NCBI GenBank assembly: GCA_017510725.1
Contig: JAFWMD010000045.1
Location: 1-34,037, forward strand
DNA from: Mogibacterium sp.
Lineage (GTDB): Bacteria; Bacillota; Clostridia; Peptostreptococcales; Anaerovoracaceae
Direction: 5' to 3'
Length of the DNA stretch: 34,037 bases
Shown one piece after another: positions 18,038 to 34,004 of this stretch; the first letter of the stretch is position 1; each line of letters begins with the position of its first letter. Below the pieces are notes generated by a model. It saw only the letters and a list, made by a program, of their open reading frames with translations. It had not been told where the DNA came from and searched no databases. Position numbers and translations under genes: made by a program.

Positions 18038-18065
18038 AACGGAGGGCATAGGCCCTCCGTTCCTG
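18038..18065. terminator. Bidirectional terminator between convergent operons
   Basis: AACGGAGGG (18038-18046) and CCCTCCGTT (18053-18061) form a perfect 9-bp stem. The leftward strand continues with TTTTTCTC and the rightward strand with CCTGTTTTG. It separates the GPH symporter from the leftward redox operon. Confidence 0.85.
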
Positions 18066-18082
18066 TTTTGATGATTTATTTT

Positions 18083-19291
18083 TTAATAGTATTCGCCAGG
18101 TACTATGATGGTTATGTCTGAAAGCGCAAATGAAGTGCATGGGTGGATCTCACCGCACTGCTTGTCAGCCCATCTTCTGCCGTCTGTTTCTTCAGGAATG
18201 AATACCTTGCCTGCTGTGACTCTTGAGCGGCACCATCCGCAGTCGCCTGAACGGCACTTTGAAGGGGCTTTGATACCTGCGCGCTCTATAGCTACCAGGA
18301 TCGGCTCATTTGCCAGACAGTCGCAAACGTACTCATTTGGTCCCTGCTTTACAGTGAGCTTGAATACTTTGTCTTTAGCTTCCTGAGGATAGCCAGGCTG
18401 CTCCCATACAGTCTTGGTCGCGCCGAGGAATTCGCTGCGAATGAATTTCTTCTCAAGGCCAAGCTTAGCAACTTCCTTGCCGATGAAGCGGTACATTGCT
18501 TCCGGTCCGCATATGAACACGCTGTAAGGTTCTTCACCCGCGTATTTCTTAATGAGATCGGCCGTGATGAAGCCGTGCTCAAATCCGTCTTTCTTTTCAT
18601 CCGAAAGCACGTGAATGACCTCTACTTTGTCGGTCTCAGCCATGATTTTATCGAACTCATCCCTGAAGAGGATGGCCTCTTCTTTTCTGCTTCCGAAGAG
18701 AATCGTCAGTTTGAAATCTTCAATTCCGTCTCTTATGGCATATGCCATGGAGAGGAAAGGAGTGATACCGGAACCGCCTGCCAGAGCTACAACGTGGTCT
18801 GCATCCCTGTACTTCTGATAATAAAATGCGCCAAGTCCCTCGGAACCTTTTACCTCATCTCCGACCTTGAAGCTGTCGAGCATCCAGTCAGCAGCAAAAC
18901 CGCCGGGATTGGCCTTGACCGTAACTGCCACCTTACCCTCGAGAGCCCACTTAGGCGAGGATGAGATCGAGTACGGACGTGTAACAAAGCTTTCTCCGAT
19001 AGGGAGCTTAAGAGATATATACTGACCGGCCCTGAAATATGAAGCCGGTTTTCCGTCAGCTCTTTTGAATACGAATGTCTTTGCGCCGGCAGCAGCGTGG
19101 TCTATGATCTTATCGATAACCAGAGGCTGGAAGTCAGGATGCATGGCCTTCGCGAAATTGTTGACCGGATAATCTGCTGTGATCTCTTTTGCAGGAGCTG
19201 CCGCGATTACTTTTTCCCTGTCCTTGGCTAGATTCGCAAACTTAAGCATGTCCAGAAGTCCTATAAGGCCTACTTTGAAATTGAGTGCCAT
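18083..19291 (-). CDS. FNR-type flavin reductase with C-terminal 2Fe-2S domain (copy 1)
   Basis: A 402-residue electron-transfer protein. After an N-terminal extension of about 55 residues, the FAD domain (about 55-155) has RPYSISSS, and the NAD(P) domain shows GGSGITPFLSM and CGPEAMYRF. The C-terminal plant-type ferredoxin domain has C346, C351 and C354 in CRSGDCGWC and a fourth ligand, C385, in IHPC. This is the layout of reductases that pass electrons from NAD(P)H through FAD to 2Fe-2S, as in oxygenase reductases, but no oxygenase is nearby. Its ATG overlaps the stop of the FAD oxidoreductase gene by 1 nt, so the two are coupled and probably partners. The paralogue at 25939-27150 has the same order. 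Confidence 0.92.
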   Translation of the reverse strand: MALNFKVGLIGLLDMLKFANLAKDREKVIAAAPAKEITADYPVNNFAKAMHPDFQPLVIDKIIDHAAAGAKTFVFKRADGKPASYFRAGQYISLKLPIGESFVTRPYSISSSPKWALEGKVAVTVKANPGGFAADWMLDSFKVGDEVKGSEGLGAFYYQKYRDADHVVALAGGSGITPFLSMAYAIRDGIEDFKLTILFGSRKEEAILFRDEFDKIMAETDKVEVIHVLSDEKKDGFEHGFITADLIKKYAGEEPYSVFICGPEAMYRFIGKEVAKLGLEKKFIRSEFLGATKTVWEQPGYPQEAKDKVFKLTVKQGPNEYVCDCLANEPILVAIERAGIKAPSKCRSGDCGWCRSRVTAGKVFIPEETDGRRWADKQCGEIHPCTSFALSDITIIVPGEYY

Positions 19292-20829
19292 TACTTGTTA
19301 CCTCCTTCCCTGAGATCTGCACAGACCATCTGTGCGCAGAGGTCTCCGTTGATCCATGTGGATGAGTATCCGTCTGCCATGAACGATCCTGCACCGATGT
19401 GGCGGAGACCCTTGATAGTGAAGTCTGCCTGTACGTCCATCATTCTCGCGATGATGCCGTCCCAGTCGCTTACCTCGAATCCGTAAGGCGTGCCGTCCGG
19501 TGTGCCGAGGTATCTTGCGAAGGTCATCGGCGTTGCGACTTCGACTTCCTCGATGTACGGAGTAAGGTCGATACCAAGATTCTTCTTTACGTCATCTATG
19601 CACTTTGCGATCATTTTATCCTTGATTTTGTAGTATTCTTCCGGAGTCAGTTTTGCCCAGTCATCGGACTCGCTGAACAGCTTGGTGAAGCTGACTACGC
19701 ATGTGCCTTCCGGCGAGAAATCAGGAATCAGGGTGTTGTAGCTGATAAGGATATTGTAATCGTTATCGATGCTCTTCATGTATTCGTATTCCTTGCGGGA
19801 ATCAGCAGTCTCCGCGAAGAAAATGCAGTAATCCTTGATGCCTATCTCTTCGACCGGTTTGTTGAGAGCCATGTAGACCATGCAGAACTTTGTACTGAAC
19901 TTCTTGTTCCTTGCGGCTGAGAGTTTCTTGTCGCGCTCAGGCACGAGTTCCTTAGGTATCATCTTCGCGTCTATGATATCCGGGTTGATGTTGGCAAGCA
20001 CCTGCTCACACTCTACATCTCCGAGGCTCGTTTTGACGCCGCAGACTTTGTCCCCGTCAAAGAGGAACTGCTCTGCTCTGCAGTTGAACCATGCTTCGCC
20101 GCCAAGCTCATAGAACCTGTTCATGAAGGTCATTGAAATCTCGTGGGACGTATGGTGAGGGATGACCGCCTGACGGATGACATACATGTCGATCATGTTT
20201 CCGAAGTGGAAGAAGTTGATCTCGTCCAGAGGGATTCCGAGGTAAGGCCAGTATACGCCAAGTATGTCGATTGCCCTCTGAGGGATCTTCAGTGCCTGCA
20301 TTACTCTGAGCGCATTGTATCCGCATGCCCTCAGGGTGTTAGGGAAGTGCTTTTGCATGTACTTGGCGTCGTTCGGAGTACCGTCGTTCATGTAAACCTT
20401 GGCTGCCCTGACTTCAAGAAGCAGGTCGAAGAACTTCTCCATGGAATTCTTTGAACCCGGGACGTACTTTTCCATCGCGGCTATGAATTCCTTGCGGCCG
20501 CACGGCATTGTGACGTCCATAGGAGTTCCGTCAGAGTACGTGGAAATGCACCTGTAACATTCAGGTACAGTGATCCAGTCGACGTTTACACCGTTTCTTT
20601 CCATGAGAAGTCTGACATGGCCTTTGTTATCTTCGGGGCCGAAGTCACAGATCTCATGGACGCTCGGGTCAAACTCGAACCGTCCTCTTCTGAAGCTGGA
20701 CGCACATCCTCCAGGCAGATTGTGCTGATCAATGAGCAGGGTCTTTTTCCCCTCGACAGCACATTTAACAGCTGCACTGAGGCCGGCGTTTCCGGCTCCG
20801 ACAACTACTACATCGTACTTTGCTGCCAT
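19291..20829 (-). CDS. CrtI-like FAD-dependent oxidoreductase (copy 1)
   Basis: A 512-residue flavoprotein of the phytoene desaturase/COG1233 family. The dinucleotide fold is VVVVGAGNAGLSAAV (G11, G13, G16), then the acidic end of the second strand in LLIDQH, and PGGCASSFRRGRFEFDPSVHE. The C-terminal FAD contact region reads GAGSFMADGYSSTWINGDLC. This family oxidises, reduces or isomerises C-C double bonds. No carotenoid gene is near, so the substrate is unknown. The start lies 22 nt inside the end of the MoxR gene, with GGAGAA as ribosome site there. It is followed directly by the flavin/2Fe-2S reductase, its probable electron partner. Confidence 0.92.
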   Translation of the reverse strand: MAAKYDVVVVGAGNAGLSAAVKCAVEGKKTLLIDQHNLPGGCASSFRRGRFEFDPSVHEICDFGPEDNKGHVRLLMERNGVNVDWITVPECYRCISTYSDGTPMDVTMPCGRKEFIAAMEKYVPGSKNSMEKFFDLLLEVRAAKVYMNDGTPNDAKYMQKHFPNTLRACGYNALRVMQALKIPQRAIDILGVYWPYLGIPLDEINFFHFGNMIDMYVIRQAVIPHHTSHEISMTFMNRFYELGGEAWFNCRAEQFLFDGDKVCGVKTSLGDVECEQVLANINPDIIDAKMIPKELVPERDKKLSAARNKKFSTKFCMVYMALNKPVEEIGIKDYCIFFAETADSRKEYEYMKSIDNDYNILISYNTLIPDFSPEGTCVVSFTKLFSESDDWAKLTPEEYYKIKDKMIAKCIDDVKKNLGIDLTPYIEEVEVATPMTFARYLGTPDGTPYGFEVSDWDGIIARMMDVQADFTIKGLRHIGAGSFMADGYSSTWINGDLCAQMVCADLREGGNK

Positions 20830-22271
20830 AATTCTTCTCCTTTCTTAAGGATTTCAAGTTTTCTTTCATACAGCTTTAGTGAATCATTGTTTTTATAATA
20901 TGCATCGCATCCATATCTGGATATGAATCTCGATGAATATGAACCTAATGTAAGTTCGGTGACCAGGATCACCATTTCCTGTCCCTGACCCCAGACCTTC
21001 TCAGCAAAAGCGAAAAGATTATCCAGCTTTATGCGGGCCTTAGCGGCAGCGGCTTTCATGTCCGCTGCCATCTTATCGTAGTCAGCCTTTATGGCTGCAA
21101 AATCTGCGTGTTCGTGATGCCGCAGGAAATCAAGCACGGTCTCATATTTGAGACGGGCGTCTGCAGAGAGAACACCCATCCTGCGGAAGCGATGATAGAC
21201 CGCTTCCTCTTCGCTTGTTATCTCCGAGATATCAGCACCTTCCTTTACCTGTCTGAGCAGTCTGACCAGTTCAGCTACACAGTCTTCTGTCTTTATTACT
21301 TCTGATATATCCGAATTGACATTGTCGAGGAGGAGGCCGGTGAGAGCAAGCCTCTCATCAAAAGGCGCATCTTTTGCGCGCTGAGCAATTACCGGGTCTT
21401 CCGTGCCGGACAGGATCTCCGCAATTTTATAATCAGACTTATATTTTTTAAACAGGTCATAGTAAGACGCAAAATCGTCTGCTGTTTCAGGATACTGCAG
21501 ATACTGAGCAACAAGGGCCTTGTCGACTGCAAGTCCGAGTTCTTCATAAATGCTTATGATCCTGCTGAGGTCAGTCCAGCCTCTGGCAGTTACAAAGCGT
21601 TTTCCGAGTGCGGTCTCTTCGATCCTGTAGAAGTTGGATCTGCGGGCCTCAAGATAGGTGACAACGGAAGCGTGTATACCCGTGCTGTATGAGTATGACT
21701 TCCAGGCATCAAAATCCGGATCTATGTCGATGCGCTTGAGCCTGTCCCATATCACGACATCGAATTCCTTTGCGTTGCGGTTGTATTCGACCGGATTGCC
21801 TGCGGTGACTATGATCCATCCCTCCGGCACCTTGTGCTTGCCAAATGTCTTGAACTGCAGGAACTGCAGCATGGAAGGGGTGAGGGTCTCCGACGCGCAG
21901 TTGACTTCGTCCAGGAACAGAATGCCTTCCCTGAGGCCTGTCTCCGACATTACATCATAAACGGATGAGATGATCTCACTCATCGTGTATTCGGATACGT
22001 CGTATTCATTGCCTTCATAGGTCTTATGAACTATCTTGGGGAGTCCAAGAGCTGACTGCCTTGTGTGGTGGGTTATGGAGTAACTTACCAGGCCTATTCC
22101 GAGCTCCTCGGCAACCTGGCGCACGATGGCTGTTTTGCCTATCCCCGGAGGGCCCATCAGGAAGAGAGGCCTCTGGTCTTCGACAGGCAGCAGATAATTG
22201 CCGAATCTGTCCCTTACAGAATATGCTTTTATCGTATTGACGAGCTGGGTCTTGGCTTCTGCAATATTCAT
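20808..22271 (-). CDS. MoxR-like AAA ATPase
   Basis: A 487-residue ATPase. The Walker A motif is GPPGIGKT (40-47), Walker B is ILFLDE (117-122), and sensor I is the TAGNP strand; the fold fits AAA_5/MoxR proteins. The C-terminal 200 residues are helical and specific to this protein, ending in a charged helix. MoxR ATPases work with VWA proteins as chaperones that remodel or activate partner enzymes. Such a partner (DUF2201) is encoded two genes upstream in this operon. It overlaps the LRR gene by 4 nt (ATGA) and the oxidoreductase gene by 22 nt, which implies tightly coupled expression. Confidence 0.9.
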   Translation of the reverse strand: MNIAEAKTQLVNTIKAYSVRDRFGNYLLPVEDQRPLFLMGPPGIGKTAIVRQVAEELGIGLVSYSITHHTRQSALGLPKIVHKTYEGNEYDVSEYTMSEIISSVYDVMSETGLREGILFLDEVNCASETLTPSMLQFLQFKTFGKHKVPEGWIIVTAGNPVEYNRNAKEFDVVIWDRLKRIDIDPDFDAWKSYSYSTGIHASVVTYLEARRSNFYRIEETALGKRFVTARGWTDLSRIISIYEELGLAVDKALVAQYLQYPETADDFASYYDLFKKYKSDYKIAEILSGTEDPVIAQRAKDAPFDERLALTGLLLDNVNSDISEVIKTEDCVAELVRLLRQVKEGADISEITSEEEAVYHRFRRMGVLSADARLKYETVLDFLRHHEHADFAAIKADYDKMAADMKAAAAKARIKLDNLFAFAEKVWGQGQEMVILVTELTLGSYSSRFISRYGCDAYYKNNDSLKLYERKLEILKKGEELWQQSTM

Positions 22272-22954
22272 AGTTCGAACTCTCCTTCTTCTGCGTGTCC
22301 TTTAATGGACATCAGCAGGGCTGTGATCTCGTTTGTTCCTGCGAGATTTGACTCTATTATGTATCTGCTTATATTTCCGCACAGCAGGTTCCGGCCTGCG
22401 ATCCCGCTCATGGCCGGAATGTTATTGTGTTTTATTATCCATTCCATTATAAGCTCTTCGTATTCATGTATGAATTTTTCTGCCCGCTCAGAGGTGGCTG
22501 CGGTGTGCCGGTCTGGGCAGGAGCACCAGAGAAGGGTGTACTGCAGCTCCTCGTGATGCCTTGTTTTTCCGGGATAGCCGCATGCAATATATCCCTCGCG
22601 GAGGTTATCACAGCATCCGAAAGCATCACTGTTTATCGCGGTTGAGCTCCCCGGCACTTCTATCCTGCGAAGCGATTCACAGCTGAAGAATGCTTTCTCT
22701 TCGATAAGCTCCAGCCCGGCGGGCAGCAACGCCTCTGTAATAGCAGTTTCACCAAACGCTTCTTCACGTATGTAACGCAGGCTCGAAGGGAAAACGACTT
22801 CCCGCAGGTTTGCGCATCCATAGAAGGCGATTTCGCCTATATCTGTGATGCCTTCGGGTATGACGACTGATGTGATGCTGAGGTCTTCTGCAAATGCGCC
22901 TTCGATTATGCGCCCGTTCAGTATTTTTTCTTTTCCGATCTCAAATCTTCCCAT
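22268..22954 (-). CDS. BspA-type leucine-rich-repeat protein
   Basis: A 228-residue protein. Residues about 25-125 hold four to five BspA-type repeats, for example ITSVVIPEGITDIGEIAFYGC, LREVVFPSSLRYIREEAF and LRRIEVPGSSTAINSDAFGCC. The C-terminal 90 residues form a Cys- and His-containing helical region (LLWCSCPDRH) that I do not recognise. There is no signal peptide, unlike surface BspA proteins, so it is cytoplasmic. It starts 9 nt after the VWA gene and overlaps the MoxR gene by 4 nt. It probably acts as a scaffold or substrate adaptor for the ATPase/VWA pair, which is inference. Confidence 0.85.
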   Translation of the reverse strand: MGRFEIGKEKILNGRIIEGAFAEDLSITSVVIPEGITDIGEIAFYGCANLREVVFPSSLRYIREEAFGETAITEALLPAGLELIEEKAFFSCESLRRIEVPGSSTAINSDAFGCCDNLREGYIACGYPGKTRHHEELQYTLLWCSCPDRHTAATSERAEKFIHEYEELIMEWIIKHNNIPAMSGIAGRNLLCGNISRYIIESNLAGTNEITALLMSIKGHAEEGEFEL

Positions 22955-22963
22955 TGATGCCTC

Positions 22964-24268
22964 TTACAGACCCATTATTTCTTCGCCCTGCATTTCGATC
23001 TTCATGGCCCAGTCCGGGACCCATATATCGCGCATGCTGTCATTATGTATTATAAATGCCACATCGTAGCCGGGTGCTTTTTCCGGGAACCTGCCCATGC
23101 CGTCGGTGAAGTAGAGCACCCCCCGCAGATCAGTAAGCCTGCGCTCTTCCAGAAGCTTGCCCACATATTCAAAGACCGGCCTGAAGTCCGTGCGTCCCAG
23201 GCCTTTGATCTCTTTATCTATAAAGTACCTGTCAAAATCGTCAGCCGATCTGATGATTTCGACATCCCTGATCTCATCATCACACTGGATGATATACAGG
23301 TTGATGCTGGTGTCAAAAGAATTCTGTGCTGCCAGAACGTCGTGCGTATGCTGTACGAATTTCTGAACGACCTCGCCTTTGACACTGCCTGATGTATCTA
23401 TGGCGATGACGAAGTCCCTGATGTTCTTCTTATCTCTGTATTCGAGCGGCTCAATAAGCGGTATGTCACCGTAGAGATCCAGCCCGTAAGTGTAGTAGTT
23501 GTTGTCAAATTCTTCTTCGGACAGCCGTATCGTTTCGGAGTGAATGCCGAAACGTTTCAGGAATTCCGTATAATTGTATCTCACACGATTGATATCCCTG
23601 AGGTTCTGCGTAAGTGCGCTGCTGTCATTGCGGAACAGTTCAAGCTCTGTCTGCATTCGCCTGGATATGTCATCCCAGAGCTCACGGAGGTCTATTTCGC
23701 TGGTGATGGTCTGATCCGGTGTGCCTCCGCCATACCATAGGTCATGCTGATCCCCGGCAAACAATTCACTCCACTCATAGCATCTGGTCATTGAAACCTC
23801 GCCGCTGCTGAGATAATTGTAGATCCTTTCGGCAGTAAGCGCCGGCAGTTTTTCTCTCAGCATGGAGATGACGGAAAACTGGCTGTCCTGACGTTTCACA
23901 ATGAGGAAGTCGCGTCCCAGTCCGTTGATCGAATCTTCGACCGCAATGTCACATGCCAGATCCCATCTCAGTCTTTCAATACCCGGACCCACGATGCTGT
24001 GCCTGAAGACACTGTGAAGAATGCTGTGAAGCAGGTTGCGGGGTATGAGGTTCTGCTCCTGCCTGTAAGATATTATAAGAGTCCATGGACTGTACATCAC
24101 GAATCCGCCGCCTGATGCAAAACCGTAATTCATGTTCGGGACACAGCGAAAATTGCCAACAGCCCGATCCATGAAACGAAGATTAACAAGGATCGAATTC
24201 CTGGCAAGAGTGATTATTTCACCTGATAATTCCTGTGCCTGACGGTCACGCTCGGTAAGATTGTCCAT
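22964..24268 (-). CDS. DUF2201-type VWA protein with pseudo-metallopeptidase N-domain
   Basis: A 434-residue protein. The N-terminal domain (about 20-150) matches the putative metallopeptidase domain DUF2201_N, but where such domains have an HExxH-like helix this one reads HSILHSVFRH (H81, H85, H90), without the Glu. The C-terminal VWA-like domain (about 285-430) has the metal-binding DTSGS motif (D291, S293, S295) and ends with YFTDGMGRFPEK. It is the first gene of the leftward five-gene operon and the likely partner of the MoxR-like ATPase. The start has no Shine-Dalgarno sequence and lies 7 nt after a -10-like hexamer, so the mRNA may be leaderless. Confidence 0.88.
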   Translation of the reverse strand: MDNLTERDRQAQELSGEIITLARNSILVNLRFMDRAVGNFRCVPNMNYGFASGGGFVMYSPWTLIISYRQEQNLIPRNLLHSILHSVFRHSIVGPGIERLRWDLACDIAVEDSINGLGRDFLIVKRQDSQFSVISMLREKLPALTAERIYNYLSSGEVSMTRCYEWSELFAGDQHDLWYGGGTPDQTITSEIDLRELWDDISRRMQTELELFRNDSSALTQNLRDINRVRYNYTEFLKRFGIHSETIRLSEEEFDNNYYTYGLDLYGDIPLIEPLEYRDKKNIRDFVIAIDTSGSVKGEVVQKFVQHTHDVLAAQNSFDTSINLYIIQCDDEIRDVEIIRSADDFDRYFIDKEIKGLGRTDFRPVFEYVGKLLEERRLTDLRGVLYFTDGMGRFPEKAPGYDVAFIIHNDSMRDIWVPDWAMKIEMQGEEIMGL

Positions 24269-24274
24269 GATTTA

Positions 24275-24302
24275 ATGATAAGCATTTTGACCTTTTTTTC
24301 AA
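24275..24302 (-). promoter_or_regulatory. Promoter of the MoxR/VWA/redox operon
   Basis: On the minus strand TTGAAA (24302-24297), a 16-bp spacer and TATCAT (24280-24275). The expected start falls at or next to the ATG at 24268. The sequence is AT-rich and shared with the divergent operon. Confidence 0.45.
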
Positions 24303-24315
24303 ACAATTATGGGAA

Positions 24316-24321
24316 TATAAT
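24316..24321 (+). promoter_or_regulatory. Candidate -10 of the divergent redox pair
   Basis: TATAAT lies 72 bp before the TTG start at 24393. No good -35 is at the standard distance; TTGACC at 24288 is 22 bp away. This gap of 124 bp holds both divergent promoters. Confidence 0.3.
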
Positions 24322-24392
24322 TAATTATCGAATGTTAACTTAAGCGTTGATAAATACTGTTGTTTGCCCAATTGACAAAGGGGGTGTATTGC

Positions 24393-25934
24393 TTGAAAAA
24401 ACATTATGACATAGTTGTTGTCGGCGCAGGCAATGCGGGTCTGTCGGCAGCTCTTCACAGTGCTGTCGAGGGTAAAAAGGTGCTGCTTATAGAGCAACAT
24501 AATCTGCCGGGCGGCTGCGCAACAAGTTTCAGAAGGGGAAGGTTTGAATTTGAGCCTTCACTGCACGAGCTCTGCGACATAGGAAGCGAAGATGATCCTG
24601 CAGAGATCCGTCAGATGATGATGGACTATGGAGTGAAAGTGGACTGGAAGGAAGTACCTGACTGCTTCCGCATCATAAGCAAGTATAAGGACGGAGCTCC
24701 GATGGATGTCAGCATGCCTTTCGGATGCGAAAACTTCATCGACAAGATGGAATACTACGTTCCGGGTTCACGTCCGAAGATGGAAGAGTATTTTGAACTT
24801 CTGAACGAGACGGTTGCAGGTACTGCATATATCAGCGCGTCAAACGGAAAGGCCGATTCGGGCGTTCTCAAGGAGAAGTATCCGAACCTGCTCAGGACGG
24901 GTTCGTACCCTGTTACAAAGGTATGGAAGGCCATGGGTATTCCTCAGAGATGCTGCGATATCATGTCTACATACTGGGGATATCTAGGAATAGACCTCGA
25001 CCGCATGGCGTTCATCCATTACTGCAACATGTTCATGAAGTATGTGTCGCGAGCCGCTTACATTCCGGCTCACACATCGCATGAGATAAGCAATGCGATG
25101 ATAGAGAGGCTCAGGGAGCTCGGCGGAGACATCTGGTTCAACTGCAGGGCTGAAGAGTTCCTGTTTGACGGAGATCAGCTGTGCGGAGTCCGCACAAGCT
25201 GCGGAGAAGTCGAATGCGACTACGTGCTTGCAAATATCAATCCGGATATCATCTACGCGAAGATGGTACCTAAGGAGCTTATCCCTGAAAGGGAGAAAAA
25301 GCTGTCTGCTGCAAGAGGCAAAAACTACAGCGCCAGAATGTATACCGTTTATGTAGGCCTTAACAAGACCGCCGAAGAGCTCGGGATCAAGGACTACTGC
25401 ATATTCTTTGCTGATACATCGGATTCAGTAGAGGAATATAAGAACATTCTCGGCGGATTCGATAAGAACAATTTTACGATCTTCCTCTGCAACAATGTCG
25501 TTAATCCTGACGCTTCGCCTGCGGGAACTTCCATGGGATTCTTCACATCCATGGGCAATCGTGAGGAGTGGAGCGATCTTTCCCAGGAAGACTACGTTGC
25601 ATACAAGAACAAATACGCCAAAAAGTTCATCAAGACGCTGAAGGACCGCGCGGGCATTGACATTGAGCCATACATCGAAGAGATATGCGTAGCATCGCCG
25701 TGGACTTTCGCAAGGTATCTTGGAACACCTGAAGGCTCCGTATATGGCTACGAGACAGCTGACTGGGACGGCATGATGGCGAGAATGATGATGCTGAACG
25801 AGGATTATCCAATCAAGGGACTCAGACCGATTGGCGCTGCAGGCCCGAGAGGAGACGGATACAGCTCGGCTTACGTATGCGGCAGGCTGATGGCTCGCCT
25901 TGCTATCAGGGATCTTAAGGAAGAAGGGAGGTAG
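24393..25934 (+). CDS. CrtI-like FAD-dependent oxidoreductase (copy 2)
   Basis: A 513-residue paralogue of the leftward oxidoreductase at 19291-20829, similar along the whole length (for example QHNLPGGCATSFRRGRFEFE and VLANINPDIIYAKMVPKEL). The dinucleotide fold is VVVGAGNAG (G11, G13, G16). I place the start at TTG 24393: AAAGGGGGTG lies just upstream and the length then equals the paralogue; the ATG-less frame from 24360 adds 11 residues without support. It is followed 4 nt later by its own flavin/2Fe-2S reductase. It diverges from the MoxR/VWA operon. The substrate is unknown; the duplicate pairs may act on related substrates or in opposite directions. Confidence 0.92.
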   Translation: MKKHYDIVVVGAGNAGLSAALHSAVEGKKVLLIEQHNLPGGCATSFRRGRFEFEPSLHELCDIGSEDDPAEIRQMMMDYGVKVDWKEVPDCFRIISKYKDGAPMDVSMPFGCENFIDKMEYYVPGSRPKMEEYFELLNETVAGTAYISASNGKADSGVLKEKYPNLLRTGSYPVTKVWKAMGIPQRCCDIMSTYWGYLGIDLDRMAFIHYCNMFMKYVSRAAYIPAHTSHEISNAMIERLRELGGDIWFNCRAEEFLFDGDQLCGVRTSCGEVECDYVLANINPDIIYAKMVPKELIPEREKKLSAARGKNYSARMYTVYVGLNKTAEELGIKDYCIFFADTSDSVEEYKNILGGFDKNNFTIFLCNNVVNPDASPAGTSMGFFTSMGNREEWSDLSQEDYVAYKNKYAKKFIKTLKDRAGIDIEPYIEEICVASPWTFARYLGTPEGSVYGYETADWDGMMARMMMLNEDYPIKGLRPIGAAGPRGDGYSSAYVCGRLMARLAIRDLKEEGR

Positions 25935-25938
25935 AGTC

Positions 25939-27150
25939 ATGGCAGTAAAAGTTAAAATCGGACTGATCGGTGCGCTCGACATGCTGAAGTTCAAGAACAT
26001 GGCAAAGGTGCGCGAAATGGCTATCCAGGCTGCTCCTGCCAATGAGATCACAGCTGATTATGCGATCAACAACCATGCCAGAGACCTGCATCCGGATTTC
26101 CAGGAACTGGTAGTAGATAAGGTGATCGACCATGAAGGAGCAGGCGCAAAAACCTTCCTCATGCGCTCAAAGAACGGCGGCCCGGTCGCTTACTTCCGCG
26201 CAGGACAGTATCTCTCACTGAAGCTGAATATTGACGGCAGCTCGATCAGCAGGCCTTATTCAATAAGCTCATGCCCAAAGGATGCTCTGAAAGGAGTTGT
26301 ATCAGTAACGGTCCGCAGCAATCCGGGCGGATTTGCGGCAGAGCACATGCTGAAAGAGTTCAGGGAAGGCGACGAGGTGCTCTCGTCCGGACCGCAGGGC
26401 AATTTCTATTATGAGCCTCTGCGTGATCCTGAGCATATAGTAGCTCTTGCAGGCGGAAGCGGCATCACACCTTTCCTCTCGATGGCACAGGCGATCGCAG
26501 ACGGAACAGAGGACTTCGATCTGACGATACTCTTCGGAAGCAGGACCAAAGATCAGATACTCTTTAAGGAAGAGCTCGATTACATAGCAGAAAAGTGCGA
26601 TAAAGTACATGTCGTTCACGTTCTTTCAGATGAAGAGGCTGAAGGCTTTGAGCACGGATTTATCACAGCTGAACTCATTAAGAAATACGCGAAGGAGCCA
26701 TACAGCGTATTCGTCTGCGGACCTGAAGCGATGTACAGATTCCTCAAGGGAGAGCTCGACAAGCTTGGCCTCCCGAAGAAGAACATCAGATGCGAGATGC
26801 TCGGAGTTACGAAGAAGATCGCTGAAGCGGAAGGCTTCCCTGAAGATGCAGTGGGCAGGGAATTTGACATTACGGTCAGACAGGGAGCTTATGAATACTT
26901 CCTCAAGGCGAATGCTGAAGAACCTATTCTGGTCGCGGTAGAGAGGGCAGGCATAACAGCTCCGTCGCGCTGCAGAAGCGGTGAGTGCGGCTGGTGCCGC
27001 TCTAAGGTGATCTCCGGCTCATATTTTGCTCCGGCTGAAAACGAGAACAGGAGATGGGCGGACGTCAAATGGGATTACATCCACCCATGCGCTACGTTCC
27101 CGACGTCAGACATGGTGATCGAAGTACCTGCTGAATACACACCGAAATAA
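25939..27150 (+). CDS. FNR-type flavin reductase with C-terminal 2Fe-2S domain (copy 2)
   Basis: A 403-residue paralogue of the protein at 18083-19291. The N-terminal extension KIGLIGALDMLKFKNMAKVRE is shared with copy 1 and is not part of the usual FNR core. RPYSISSC marks the FAD site, GGSGITPFLSM and CGPEAMYRF the NAD(P) domain. The 2Fe-2S ligands are C345, C350, C353 and C384. ATG 25939 has GGGAGG upstream and lies 4 nt after the oxidoreductase stop; an earlier TTG at 25900 would overlap that gene and is not supported. It probably feeds NAD(P)H electrons to the CrtI-like partner encoded upstream. Confidence 0.92.
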   Translation: MAVKVKIGLIGALDMLKFKNMAKVREMAIQAAPANEITADYAINNHARDLHPDFQELVVDKVIDHEGAGAKTFLMRSKNGGPVAYFRAGQYLSLKLNIDGSSISRPYSISSCPKDALKGVVSVTVRSNPGGFAAEHMLKEFREGDEVLSSGPQGNFYYEPLRDPEHIVALAGGSGITPFLSMAQAIADGTEDFDLTILFGSRTKDQILFKEELDYIAEKCDKVHVVHVLSDEEAEGFEHGFITAELIKKYAKEPYSVFVCGPEAMYRFLKGELDKLGLPKKNIRCEMLGVTKKIAEAEGFPEDAVGREFDITVRQGAYEYFLKANAEEPILVAVERAGITAPSRCRSGECGWCRSKVISGSYFAPAENENRRWADVKWDYIHPCATFPTSDMVIEVPAEYTPK

Positions 27151-27170
27151 AACAGAAGAAATCATAAAAC

Positions 27171-27192
27171 AGAGACGGCTCCGGCCGTCTCT
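27171..27192. terminator. Hairpin after the second redox pair
   Basis: AGAGACGGC / GCCGTCTCT forms a perfect 9-bp stem with a 4-nt loop but has no T run. It ends 13 bp before the next gene, so it may be a weak terminator or an RNA-stabilising hairpin. Confidence 0.5.
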
Positions 27193-27205
27193 GAATCACT
27201 TAAAA

Positions 27206-32386: not shown

Positions 32387-33319
32387 TCATGCTGCGAAAA
32401 GATATGACTCATGCTTTTCCATTGGAGTAAGTACTCCAAATCGACGCTGGTATCTCTCGTTATTGTAGTAGTAAATGTAGTTTTCAATCATTGCCATGAG
32501 TTCTTCACGGCTGTTGAAGCGCTTACCGTAATACCGTTCTCTCTTCAGGATTCCCCAGAAGCCTTCCATCGGACCATTGTCGATGCACTTGGCAACTCGG
32601 GACATGCTTTGTGTCATTCCGACAGCTTCAAGCTTACTGTGAAATGTCCTGCTAGTATATTGGTAGCCTCTGTCACTGTGACAAAGAGGAGTGGCTCCCG
32701 GATTTGCAGCTATAGCCTGATCGAACGTATCGAAGACGAGAAGATTGTCATTGTTGTTACCAATCGAGTAAGAGACTATCCGTCTGTCGTATAGATCAAG
32801 GATCGCACTAAGATAGATCTTATGCTTCTCCTTGTCTTCGTCATACCACTTGAATTCAGTAACATCGGTGAGCCATTTCTCGTTTGGTTTATCTGCTGTG
32901 AACTCTCTGTTCAAGATGTTTTCTGCGATGAACTGCGGATTATCTGCCTGGCGTGTGCATCCGAGGTTTCTGTACTTGATCGTAGATTTAATATCTTTGG
33001 CTCTGCATATCCGCAGTGCTCGCTTGTCGTTTATCTTGATGCCATGTTTACGGAGCAGGTCATCATTGATCCGCCGATAGCCCTTGGATGGATCCTTCAG
33101 ATGGATCTCCTCCATTTTTTCGGCGATGAGCGTGTTCTGTCTGACTCTTTCGCCAACATCACCTCGTAACCACTTGTAGTATGCTGACCTTGAAACATGC
33201 AGAATAACACAACACGACTCTATCGGATATCCTTTGGTTTCATTACAGTATTTGATCGAGCTGTAGAGATGGGACTGCCTTACTTGCGAAAGAGTTCTTC
33301 TCTCTCCAGCTCGTTCAAT
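32387..33319 (-). CDS. IS150-group transposase OrfB (reached by frameshift)
   Basis: The catalytic half of the transposase, about 310 codons in the -1 frame relative to orfA, open from the A7 slippery site at 33319-33325. It has the HTH_21-like region (SRSAYYKWL) and the rve integrase core with the DDE residues in WLTDVTEF, CHSDRGYQY and NGPMEGFWGILKRE. I see no strong internal start before ATG 33115, so it is probably made only as an OrfAB fusion. It ends with YYNNERYQRRFGVLTPMEK, typical of this group. It appears intact. Confidence 0.9.
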   Translation of the reverse strand: MERAGERRTLSQVRQSHLYSSIKYCNETKGYPIESCCVILHVSRSAYYKWLRGDVGERVRQNTLIAEKMEEIHLKDPSKGYRRINDDLLRKHGIKINDKRALRICRAKDIKSTIKYRNLGCTRQADNPQFIAENILNREFTADKPNEKWLTDVTEFKWYDEDKEKHKIYLSAILDLYDRRIVSYSIGNNNDNLLVFDTFDQAIAANPGATPLCHSDRGYQYTSRTFHSKLEAVGMTQSMSRVAKCIDNGPMEGFWGILKRERYYGKRFNSREELMAMIENYIYYYNNERYQRRFGVLTPMEKHESYLFAA

Positions 33320-33972
33320 TTTTTTAACAGATCACGCTCCATTTCTGTCATATACAGCTGGTGCTTCAGTTTTTCGATCTCGATCTGGAGCTTTTCAACT
33401 TCACTGCGAGGTTCCTGATCCACCTTGCGTTTACCACGGCGATCTTCAAGACCAGATTCACCAAGCTCCTTGTAACGCTGGACCCAACCATACACCTGTT
33501 GGTAGCTGACGTTATGCTTGATGGCCATCTCTCCATAGTTGCAGCCATTGGCGATACAGTCCTTTACAATCTGGATGCGTTCTTCTTTTGTGGTGCTTCT
33601 TGAGGTTTTCATACGGCTTCCTCCTGACATCTTGTGTGAGAAGTCCTCGCCGTTATTATACATCTTTATCCACTCTTCCAAACGGGAACACGATCGAATC
33701 CCATATTTTGCAGCTACAACGATCGGTGAGCTGTGCTCATTTATACATTCAAGCACTGCCCTTAATCTAAAGTCTTCAGAATACACACGGTTCTTTTCTA
33801 CTGGAAAAAAGCCATATTCTCCTTGAAACCTATATATGGTAACCCATTTGTGAATAGTTGCAGAGCTTGTACCAACTTCTTTTGCTGCAGATCGCAGACT
33901 TAATGATCCTTCTATGCATCGTCGTGCGACACTTATTTTAAATTCAGGACTATATTTCGTTTTGTGTGACAT
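33280..33972 (-). CDS. IS150-group transposase OrfA (helix-turn-helix)
   Basis: A 230-residue DNA-binding protein, longer than the usual 170-180 for the group. It contains three helix-turn-helix-like units: YSPEFKISVARRCIEG..., SEDFRLRAVLECINEH... and TKEERIQIVKDCIANG..., each followed by an HKW/EEW/YGW-type helix. A leucine-zipper-like coiled coil (EVEKLQIEIEKLKHQLY) is at the C-terminus. ATG 33972 is preferred over 33987 because GGGAG lies just before it. The gene ends 39 nt after the slippery site. OrfA alone probably binds the inverted ends and regulates transposition. Confidence 0.9.
   Translation of the reverse strand: MSHKTKYSPEFKISVARRCIEGSLSLRSAAKEVGTSSATIHKWVTIYRFQGEYGFFPVEKNRVYSEDFRLRAVLECINEHSSPIVVAAKYGIRSCSRLEEWIKMYNNGEDFSHKMSGGSRMKTSRSTTKEERIQIVKDCIANGCNYGEMAIKHNVSYQQVYGWVQRYKELGESGLEDRRGKRKVDQEPRSEVEKLQIEIEKLKHQLYMTEMERDLLKKLNELEREELFRK
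33319..33325 (-). other. Programmed -1 frameshift slippery site
   Basis: On the minus strand the reading TTA AAA AAA TTG contains A AAA AAA, a standard -1 slippery heptamer. After the slip, the frame continues open through orfB without a stop. Confidence 0.8.
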
Positions 33973-34004
33973 AAAAGCTCCCTTCATGATTAACAGTGAT
34001 TTTC

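What the first reader, a model, noticed from the sequence alone, without database searches (positions are those of the whole stretch)
18083..27150. MoxR/VWA/LRR maturation module fused to a duplicated CrtI-like flavoprotein plus 2Fe-2S reductase system
Seen: a leftward operon VWA, LRR, MoxR, CrtI-like oxidoreductase, FNR/2Fe-2S reductase, where successive genes overlap by 22, 4 and 1 nt or lie 9 nt apart, facing a divergent operon with a second oxidoreductase/reductase pair. Known: MoxR/VWA pairs (RavA-ViaA, NorQ-NorD, CbbQ-CbbO) activate or mature metal or redox enzymes. Inference: the ATPase module serves the flavoprotein/2Fe-2S pair, and the system reduces or oxidises an unsaturated substrate in an anaerobe. 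I know of no named system with this composition.
Basis: partly seen in the sequence, partly recalled or inferred. Interest (0 to 1): 0.88.

Follow-up and report, generated by a model that had tools for sequence, protein, structure and literature searches.

The report
ATPase helper cassette beside redox enzymes
In a gut bacterium an ATP-driven helper machine is encoded in one operon with an electron-transfer enzyme pair; relatives show this linkage is conserved and that sister copies of the machine sit beside other iron-sulfur enzymes, so it is probably a dedicated activator and not a chance neighbour.

Summary
In detail: the leftward genes VWA, LRR, MoxR-like, CrtI-like and FNR/[2Fe-2S] have the spacings claimed, and a second CrtI-like/FNR pair diverges. 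The VWA-LRR-MoxR trio is widespread in gut Clostridia and usually lacks CrtI: 10 of 119 operon strings carry it, two being one contig. The CrtI-FNR pairs examined elsewhere in the family had no trio. So the five-gene set is not a general unit. But CrtI-linked MoxRs form one supported clade; in the genus, 12 of 12 genomes with that MoxR have CrtI directly behind it, down to 56-58% MoxR identity and with different flanks. Sister MoxR clades are tied to other operons (molybdenum hydroxylase; corrinoid methyltransferase plus RACo), and all three partner sets include a plant-type [2Fe-2S] (Fer2) protein. At least 18 of 88 MoxR loci have Fer2 within 8 kb, 2.7 expected; PfkB control: none in printed rows. 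CrtI-linked LRR proteins end in EF[ED]L (13 of 13). Best reading: a portable MoxR-VWA motor with an LRR adaptor, dedicated to particular Fer2/flavin enzymes, working like NorQD, CbbQO or RavA-ViaA without shown membership. Nothing was tested biochemically; the CrtI substrate is unknown.

The parts
22964..24268 (-). VWA protein (DUF2201): degenerate zincin-like N-domain (H81, H85, H90, D107 invariant) and VWA with full MIDAS (D291, S293, S295, T360, D389)
   Evidence: invariance in 32 of 32 aligned members
22268..22954 (-). BspA-type LRR protein with a ~100-residue C-terminal region and C-terminal tail -GEFEL; proposed adaptor
20808..22271 (-). MoxR-like AAA+ ATPase (Walker A GPPGIGKT, Walker B LFLDE, conserved N159, R177, R230)
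19291..20829 (-). CrtI_A: CrtI/CRTISO-like FAD oxidoreductase, start overlaps MoxR end by 22 nt
18083..19291 (-). FNR_A: FAD/NAD(P) reductase with C-terminal plant-type [2Fe-2S] domain, ends -GEYY
24360..25934 (+). CrtI_B, divergent paralogue (56% identical to A)
25900..27150 (+). FNR_B, paralogue of FNR_A (likely start 25939), ends -AEYTPK
18038..18061 (.). 10-bp palindromic hairpin between FNR_A and the convergent MFS gene, terminator-like
   Evidence: pattern match only; 12 such patterns found in the region, 7.8 in shuffles
27170..27193 (.). 10-bp palindromic hairpin after FNR_B, terminator-like; sets off EamA and hydrolase genes
   Evidence: pattern match only

Best explanation
A dedicated enzyme-activation cassette. 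MoxR hexamers (inferred) driven by ATP work on the CrtI-FNR pair through the VWA protein, whose MIDAS metal binds an acidic group. The LRR protein is proposed to be the adaptor: its solenoid would grip the client, and its short acidic-hydrophobic C-terminal tail (EFEL) would dock on the cognate VWA/MoxR. The client step is proposed to be insertion, repair or assembly at the FNR [2Fe-2S]/FAD module and its docking to CrtI. Then electrons flow NAD(P)H -> FNR FAD -> [2Fe-2S] -> CrtI FAD -> a C=C bond of an unknown hydrophobic substrate. Shown here: gene order, domains, conserved motifs, clade-specific linkage, recurrence beside other Fer2 operons. Inferred: physical contact, adaptor role, direction (activation rather than inhibition), electron path, substrate.
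For: Linkage is clade-specific: partner labels (mine) need 8 changes on the MoxR tree against 29.4 when shuffled. Twelve of 12 genomes with the CRT-type MoxR have CrtI directly downstream; Fisher 1.2e-7 over 47 genomes, 2.5e-5 in the 32 at 80% completeness, 0.001 in the 19 at 90%, uncorrected for relatedness. Flanks are not conserved: 3 shared pairs among 71 flanking ORFs of 10 loci. Sister clades: XDH-type operon (5 loci) and corrinoid methyltransferase + RACo, with Fer2 above Pfam cut-off in the members tested. At least 18 of 88 MoxR loci have Fer2 within 8 kb, 2.7 expected; PfkB control none in its printed rows. In most corrinoid operons the LRR gene lies among the methyltransferase genes rather than beside MoxR (L047 is an exception). 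XDH loci L040 and L135 carry a trigger-factor-like gene. LRR tail EF[ED]L in 13 of 13; no 4-column body window of 221 is as conserved. Precedents read in passages: NorQD, RavA-ViaA, CbbQO, CoxDE.
Against: Most trio loci have no Fer2 gene in view (70 of 88 by printed rows) and the Lachnospiraceae loci have tandem LRR genes and no redox partner that I recognised. Five of 17 genomes with A- or B-type CrtI lack this MoxR, so the trio is not strictly needed. Collapsed to genus-clade units the Fer2 excess is 4 against 0.94 (p 0.016) without the XDH loci, 7 with them (p 6e-5), and partner labels were assigned by me after seeing the loci. Tails of the XDH, corrinoid and third clades are no more conserved than many body windows. 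DPF tails also occur in L048, L052, L055 and L056, where the full methyltransferase operon was not in view (L052 has a RACo gene), so tails track lineage and not client. The FNR tail GEYY also occurs on unlinked A-type FNRs. No structure, no assay.
Confidence: 0.5

Rival explanations
1. Remodelling regulator: the trio physically represses, unloads or removes the flavoprotein pair (or aids its turnover) rather than maturing it, as RavA-ViaA is reported to lower fumarate reductase activity; the zincin-like domain would be a sensor or remnant protease.
For: RavA-ViaA precedent through the ViaA VWA domain and FrdA (passages); conserved histidines in the VWA N-domain, DUF2201_N in 31 of 32.
Against: The HExxH glutamate is absent (HSILH in the window), so proteolysis is unlikely; two XDH loci add a trigger-factor-like gene, which fits folding better.
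Confidence: 0.2
2. Biological-conflict system of the MoxR-vWA ternary type, with LRR proteins as diversifying sensors; enzymes are bystanders.
For: bpMoxR Pfam model hits 26 of 28; tandem LRR genes in Lachnospiraceae; repeat proteins are common sensors (general knowledge).
Against: PADLOC gave only weak IetA and TRIP13 P-loop hits for MoxR, a partial Cas2b hit for the VWA and nothing for LRR; the window VWA ends shortly after its VWA domain with no effector domain matched; its P-loop is GPPGIGKT, not the GXXXTAKS of the FtsH and beta-propeller systems (PMC7159879 passages); MoxR clades follow metabolic operons.
Confidence: 0.12
3. Operon capture without functional contact: the trio and the redox pair share a promoter in this lineage only.
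For: Most trios and most CrtI-FNR pairs seen live apart.
Against: Retained at 56-58% MoxR identity, with an inverted VWA in L132 and unrelated flanks; same pattern with other Fer2 operons.
Confidence: 0.18

Closest known systems
NorQ-NorD (iron insertion into cNOR)
   Same: MoxR-like AAA+ plus MIDAS VWA in the client's operon; MIDAS thought to bind acidic client residues (PMC9976466, PMC13036017 passages)
   Different: No LRR protein in the passages read; client is a membrane nitric oxide reductase; the VWA here is DUF2201 with a zincin-like N-domain
CbbQ-CbbO (rubisco activase)
   Same: Separate isoform pairs dedicated to different client forms in one cell; client C-terminal peptide stimulates the ATPase (PMC4660213 passages)
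   Different: Client is rubisco; CbbO itself is the adaptor, no separate repeat protein in the passages; the tail here is on the LRR protein
CoxD-CoxE (CO dehydrogenase Mo-Cu site)
   Same: AAA+/VWA genes in a cluster with the Mo enzyme genes coxMSL, like the XDH-linked trios here (PMC4240915 passages)
   Different: No CoxE-named Pfam model was among the five families matched by the VWA set here; the Clostridial loci have an LRR gene and in two tested cases a trigger-factor-like gene
RavA-ViaA
   Same: MoxR/VWA acting on a flavoprotein plus Fe-S enzyme (PMC10585395 passages)
   Different: No frd genes in the 18 kb around E. coli ravA-viaA; hhalign to RavA covers only the P-loop/Walker B region at 77% probability, ViaA 33%, YehP 1.5%
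MoxR-vWA ternary conflict systems (VMAP, iSTAND, FtsH, beta-propeller)
   Same: MoxR-vWA pair plus a third, varying component (PMC7159879 passages)
   Different: Third component here is LRR (ankyrin-like in L038, L058); no effector domain matched on the window VWA; metabolic partners

Membership tests
MoxR-type AAA+ ATPase | Walker A, Walker B, sensor 1, arginine finger | tested here: met
   K46, D121, E122, N159, R177 and R230 invariant in A3 and A4; residue roles assigned by me from recalled AAA+ anatomy
MoxR-type AAA+ ATPase | Helix-2 beta-hairpin insert | not testable with these tools
   structure prediction switched off
MoxR-type AAA+ ATPase | Pfam assignment to a MoxR model | tested here: inconclusive
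   AAA_5 28 of 28, bpMoxR 26 of 28, AAA_3 1 of 28
MoxR/VWA enzyme-maturation pairs | VWA with complete MIDAS encoded next to the ATPase | tested here: met
   DxSxS, T360, D389 invariant in 32 of 32; VWA in 103 of 119 MoxR operon strings
MoxR/VWA enzyme-maturation pairs | ATPase shown to activate or mature the client | not testable with these tools
   needs mutants or reconstitution
MoxR-vWA ternary conflict systems | Third component VMAP, iSTAND, FtsH or a beta-propeller on the VWA, effector domain after the VWA | tested here: not met
   window VWA matches only DUF2201 and weakly DUF2201_N and ends shortly after the VWA; third gene is LRR_5
CrtI phytoene desaturase family | NCBIfam crtI_fam or carot_isom cut-off | tested here: not met
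   54.0 bits against 238.1 and 100.6 against 586.9 for CrtI_A; so CrtI-like only
FNR-type reductase with plant-type ferredoxin domain | FAD_binding_6, NAD_binding_1 and Fer2 over cut-off | tested here: met

The most novel reading that the evidence does not exclude
A modular set of MoxR-VWA motors in gut Clostridia, each dedicated to one plant-type [2Fe-2S] enzyme system (CrtI-FNR reductase, xanthine-dehydrogenase-type hydroxylase, RACo-activated corrinoid methyltransferase) through an LRR adaptor whose C-terminal tail (EFEL, KYSI, DPFx) is an address label that keeps parallel motors in one cell apart. The window's genome carries three such trios with three different tails (EFEL, DPFQ, LEEL).
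Probability: 0.3. Interest if true: 0.87.

Novelty: new variant of a known kind. Interest (0 to 1): 0.7.

Why it matters
Few of the many MoxR/VWA pairs have a known client (general knowledge). A lineage with a separate repeat adaptor, up to three paralogues per cell and a partner operon beside many of them turns 'what does this MoxR do' into a direct test. It also suggests how anaerobes may keep [2Fe-2S] flavo-enzymes, Mo hydroxylases and corrinoid methyltransferases active. I saw no paper naming this combination in the listings of searches; four of those listings (30, 68, 86, 87) were cut short, and the library holds open-licence papers only.

Tried and rejected
Defence role: PADLOC gave weak P-loop hits for MoxR (IetA 1.5e-5, TRIP13), a partial Cas2b hit for the VWA, a desaturase-named hit for CrtI and nothing for LRR or FNR; kept as a rival. 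Substrate of CrtI: paper searches (12 of 95 listed) showed nothing on point in titles and abstract starts; I do not name a substrate. FNR tail GE[YF][YF] as a client tag: the trio-downstream FNRs read have it, but unlinked A-type FNRs in G295 and G795 also do, so dropped as diagnostic. IOR partner (L137, L138, L140): one genus, and L134 of the same MoxR clade lacks it, so not counted as a partner class. Amidohydrolase partner (L034, L142, L202): changes on the tree no better than shuffles (L202 was not on that tree). Solved structures: one non-significant hit for the VWA profile, generic AAA+ P-loop hits for MoxR. Rfam and tRNA scans of the window: none.

Rows dropped or merged: L127 is the same contig as L077 and L200 probably the same as L076 (equal contig lengths), counted once for tails. 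L075 ends at MoxR and cannot show CrtI (its LRR ends EFEL; not in the 13). L078 ends inside CrtI; its LRR is counted. L110 and L111 were left out as a fragment and a distant hit. Other named and unnamed loci could be the same genomes. The Fer2 and PfkB counts use printed rows only; both lists were cut by the tool and I matched positions to MoxR by eye.
Full report
OBSERVATION. Domains: VWA-like DUF2201; LRR_5; AAA/AAA_5/bpMoxR; a Rossmann FAD oxidoreductase nearest to carotenoid isomerase and desaturase models but far below their cut-offs; a reductase with FAD_binding_6, NAD_binding_1 and Fer2. CrtI_A and CrtI_B are 56% identical. Two palindromic terminator-like hairpins (18038-18061, 27170-27193) bound the two divergent units (pattern matches only). 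The closest named records are uncultured Clostridiales and a sheep-colon MAG called Mogibacterium.

THE TRIO ON ITS OWN. One search covered 119 family genomes (72 with a match at E 0.001, many of them distant AAA proteins), 392 order genomes (54 with a close homologue), 391 class genomes (26), and one search returned 37 named loci. I examined 119 MoxR loci: a VWA gene is in 103 of 119 operon strings and an LRR gene in 81 (108 and 88 anywhere in the stretch), while CrtI is in 10, L127 and L077 being one contig. Many contigs are short, so these are lower bounds. In Lachnospiraceae the pattern is often VWA, three or four tandem LRR genes, MoxR, with no redox gene that I recognised. In L038 and L058 a repeat protein near MoxR has ankyrin matches. 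So the trio is a unit of its own.

CONSERVED CHEMISTRY. The MIDAS residues (D291, S293, S295, T360, D389) and H81, H85, H90 with D107 are invariant in 32 of 32 VWA proteins. The N-domain matches DUF2201_N, a putative metallopeptidase domain, in 31 of 32 at E 0.01, but the window reads HSILH and not HExxH, so peptidase activity is unlikely (inference). MoxR keeps Walker A, Walker B and other AAA+ residues (roles recalled).

LINKAGE WITH CRTI-FNR. On a tree of 118 MoxRs (quick search, SH-aLRT only, midpoint root, partner labels mine) the CRT-linked rows form one group with support 100; L075, whose contig ends at MoxR, lies inside. In 47 genomes of the genus, 12 have a MoxR at 57% identity or more over the full length, and each has an A- or B/D-type CrtI directly downstream; 17 genomes have such a CrtI, 5 of them without this MoxR. 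Fisher p is 1.2e-7 for all, 2.5e-5 for the 32 at 80% completeness and 0.001 for the 19 at 90%, uncorrected for relatedness. The MoxR/CrtI overlap is 22 or 25 nt in the closer set; in L132 and L133 there is a gap of 30 and 24 nt, and in L132 the VWA is inverted yet still adjacent. Flanks are not shared: 3 pairs among 71 flanking ORFs of 10 loci, one pair from two close relatives. The trio-downstream CrtIs are of two types, A and one that groups with B. Fifteen CrtI stretches from other family genomes held an adjacent FNR in 14 (the other contig ends inside CrtI) and no MoxR, VWA or LRR match.

OTHER PARTNERS. XDH-type Mo hydroxylase genes precede the VWA in five loci of three genera (L040, L043, L135, L148, L150; MoxR support 99). 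A corrinoid methyltransferase/B12-protein/RACo operon follows MoxR in L047, L146, L149, L155 and L159, in L035 and in L203, L204 and L206. Its LRR gene lies between methyltransferase genes in L035, L146, L149, L155, L203, L204 and L206, beside MoxR in L047, and is not in view in L159. Tetrapyrrole genes precede VWA-MoxR in L035 (Pfam) and like-sized genes do so in L146, L149, L154 and L156. Pfam confirms RACo, B12-binding, URO-D, DUF1638, MoCoBD and Fer2_2 and trigger-factor domains in L040 and L135. Fer2 is over its cut-off in the tested FNR (1), XDH (2) and RACo (3) proteins. In 71 genomes at least 18 of 88 MoxR loci have a Fer2 gene within 8 kb, 2.7 expected by density. Collapsed to 43 genus-clade units it is 4 against 0.94 (p 0.016), or 7 if the XDH units, which were not in the printed rows, are added (p 6e-5). 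PfkB, a neutral family of similar copy number, had none within 8 kb in its printed rows. Against this, 70 of the 88 loci show no Fer2 in printed rows.

TAILS. CRT-linked LRRs end EF[ED]L in 13 of 13, although the least similar pair is 32% identical; no 4-column window of 221 in the body is as conserved (an earlier count on 10 sequences gave 1 of 224). Corrinoid-linked LRRs end DPFx (11 of 11), XDH-linked end [KR]Y[SRA][IL] (5 of 5), a third clade ends [DEG][DE]L (11 of 11), but in these three many body windows are as conserved (52 of 243, 109 of 639, 159 of 430). A third-clade trio fetched afterwards also fits (FDEL). The own genome holds the three MoxR clades seen in its genus, with tails EFEL (window), DPFQ (C33) and LEEL (C37). 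DPF tails also occur in L048, L052, L055 and L056 without the full methyltransferase operon in view. A docking-label role is therefore a hypothesis, best supported for EFEL.

MECHANISM. In NorQD and CbbQO the VWA MIDAS is reported to contact acidic client residues and ATPase work to remodel the client; CbbQO has isoform pairs for two rubiscos and responds to a client C-terminal peptide; ViaA binds the flavoprotein FrdA (passages read). By analogy the trio should remodel the CrtI-FNR pair, with LRR as adaptor. Activation is favoured over inhibition because of the NorQD, CbbQO and CoxDE precedents (CoxDE passages) and the trigger-factor gene, at moderate confidence. Profile comparison shows only the P-loop/Walker B region shared with RavA (77%) and a weak VWA match to ViaA (33%), so it works like, but is not shown to be a member of, those families.

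NOVELTY. Paper searches listed no MoxR-VWA-LRR enzyme cassette. The library is open-licence papers only, and listings (20 of 198; 25 of 310; 10 of 17; 12 of 21) were cut. Listings were read as titles and abstract starts; five papers on MoxR/VWA pairs (PMC9976466, PMC10585395, PMC13036017, PMC4660213, PMC4240915) and two eLife surveys (PMC7159879, PMC8195603) were read in passages.

Noticed in passing
window 32387-33987 (-): IS3-like transposase pair (rve/HTH_21 and HTH_Tnp_1 matches; family name recalled) near the end of the contig.
   Followed up: no
L085, L091, L107, L108, L109: Lachnospiraceae and Oscillospiraceae loci carry three to five tandem LRR genes upstream of MoxR, VWA first where the contig shows it; no redox gene recognised in the operon.
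   Followed up: partly
L040:10958-12142, L135:10580-11593: Trigger-factor-like gene in the operon of XDH-linked trios.
   Followed up: partly
L153: Cobalamin-biosynthesis-like genes (one CbiA/CobB-type confirmed) directly upstream of VWA-MoxR.
   Followed up: partly
window 20808-24268: Phage protein families match MoxR (phrog_1297) and nearly the whole VWA protein (phrog_1314), so phages may carry a related pair.
   Followed up: no
L190 (G787 contig 67): A CrtI_B copy with an in-frame stop beside a VWA gene; that assembly holds another trio on contig 33.
   Followed up: no
L121-L125: A distant CrtI-FNR type; in L122, L124 and L125 a second flavoprotein-like gene lies next to it, and in L125 also ligase- and thioesterase-like genes (read by eye).
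   Followed up: no
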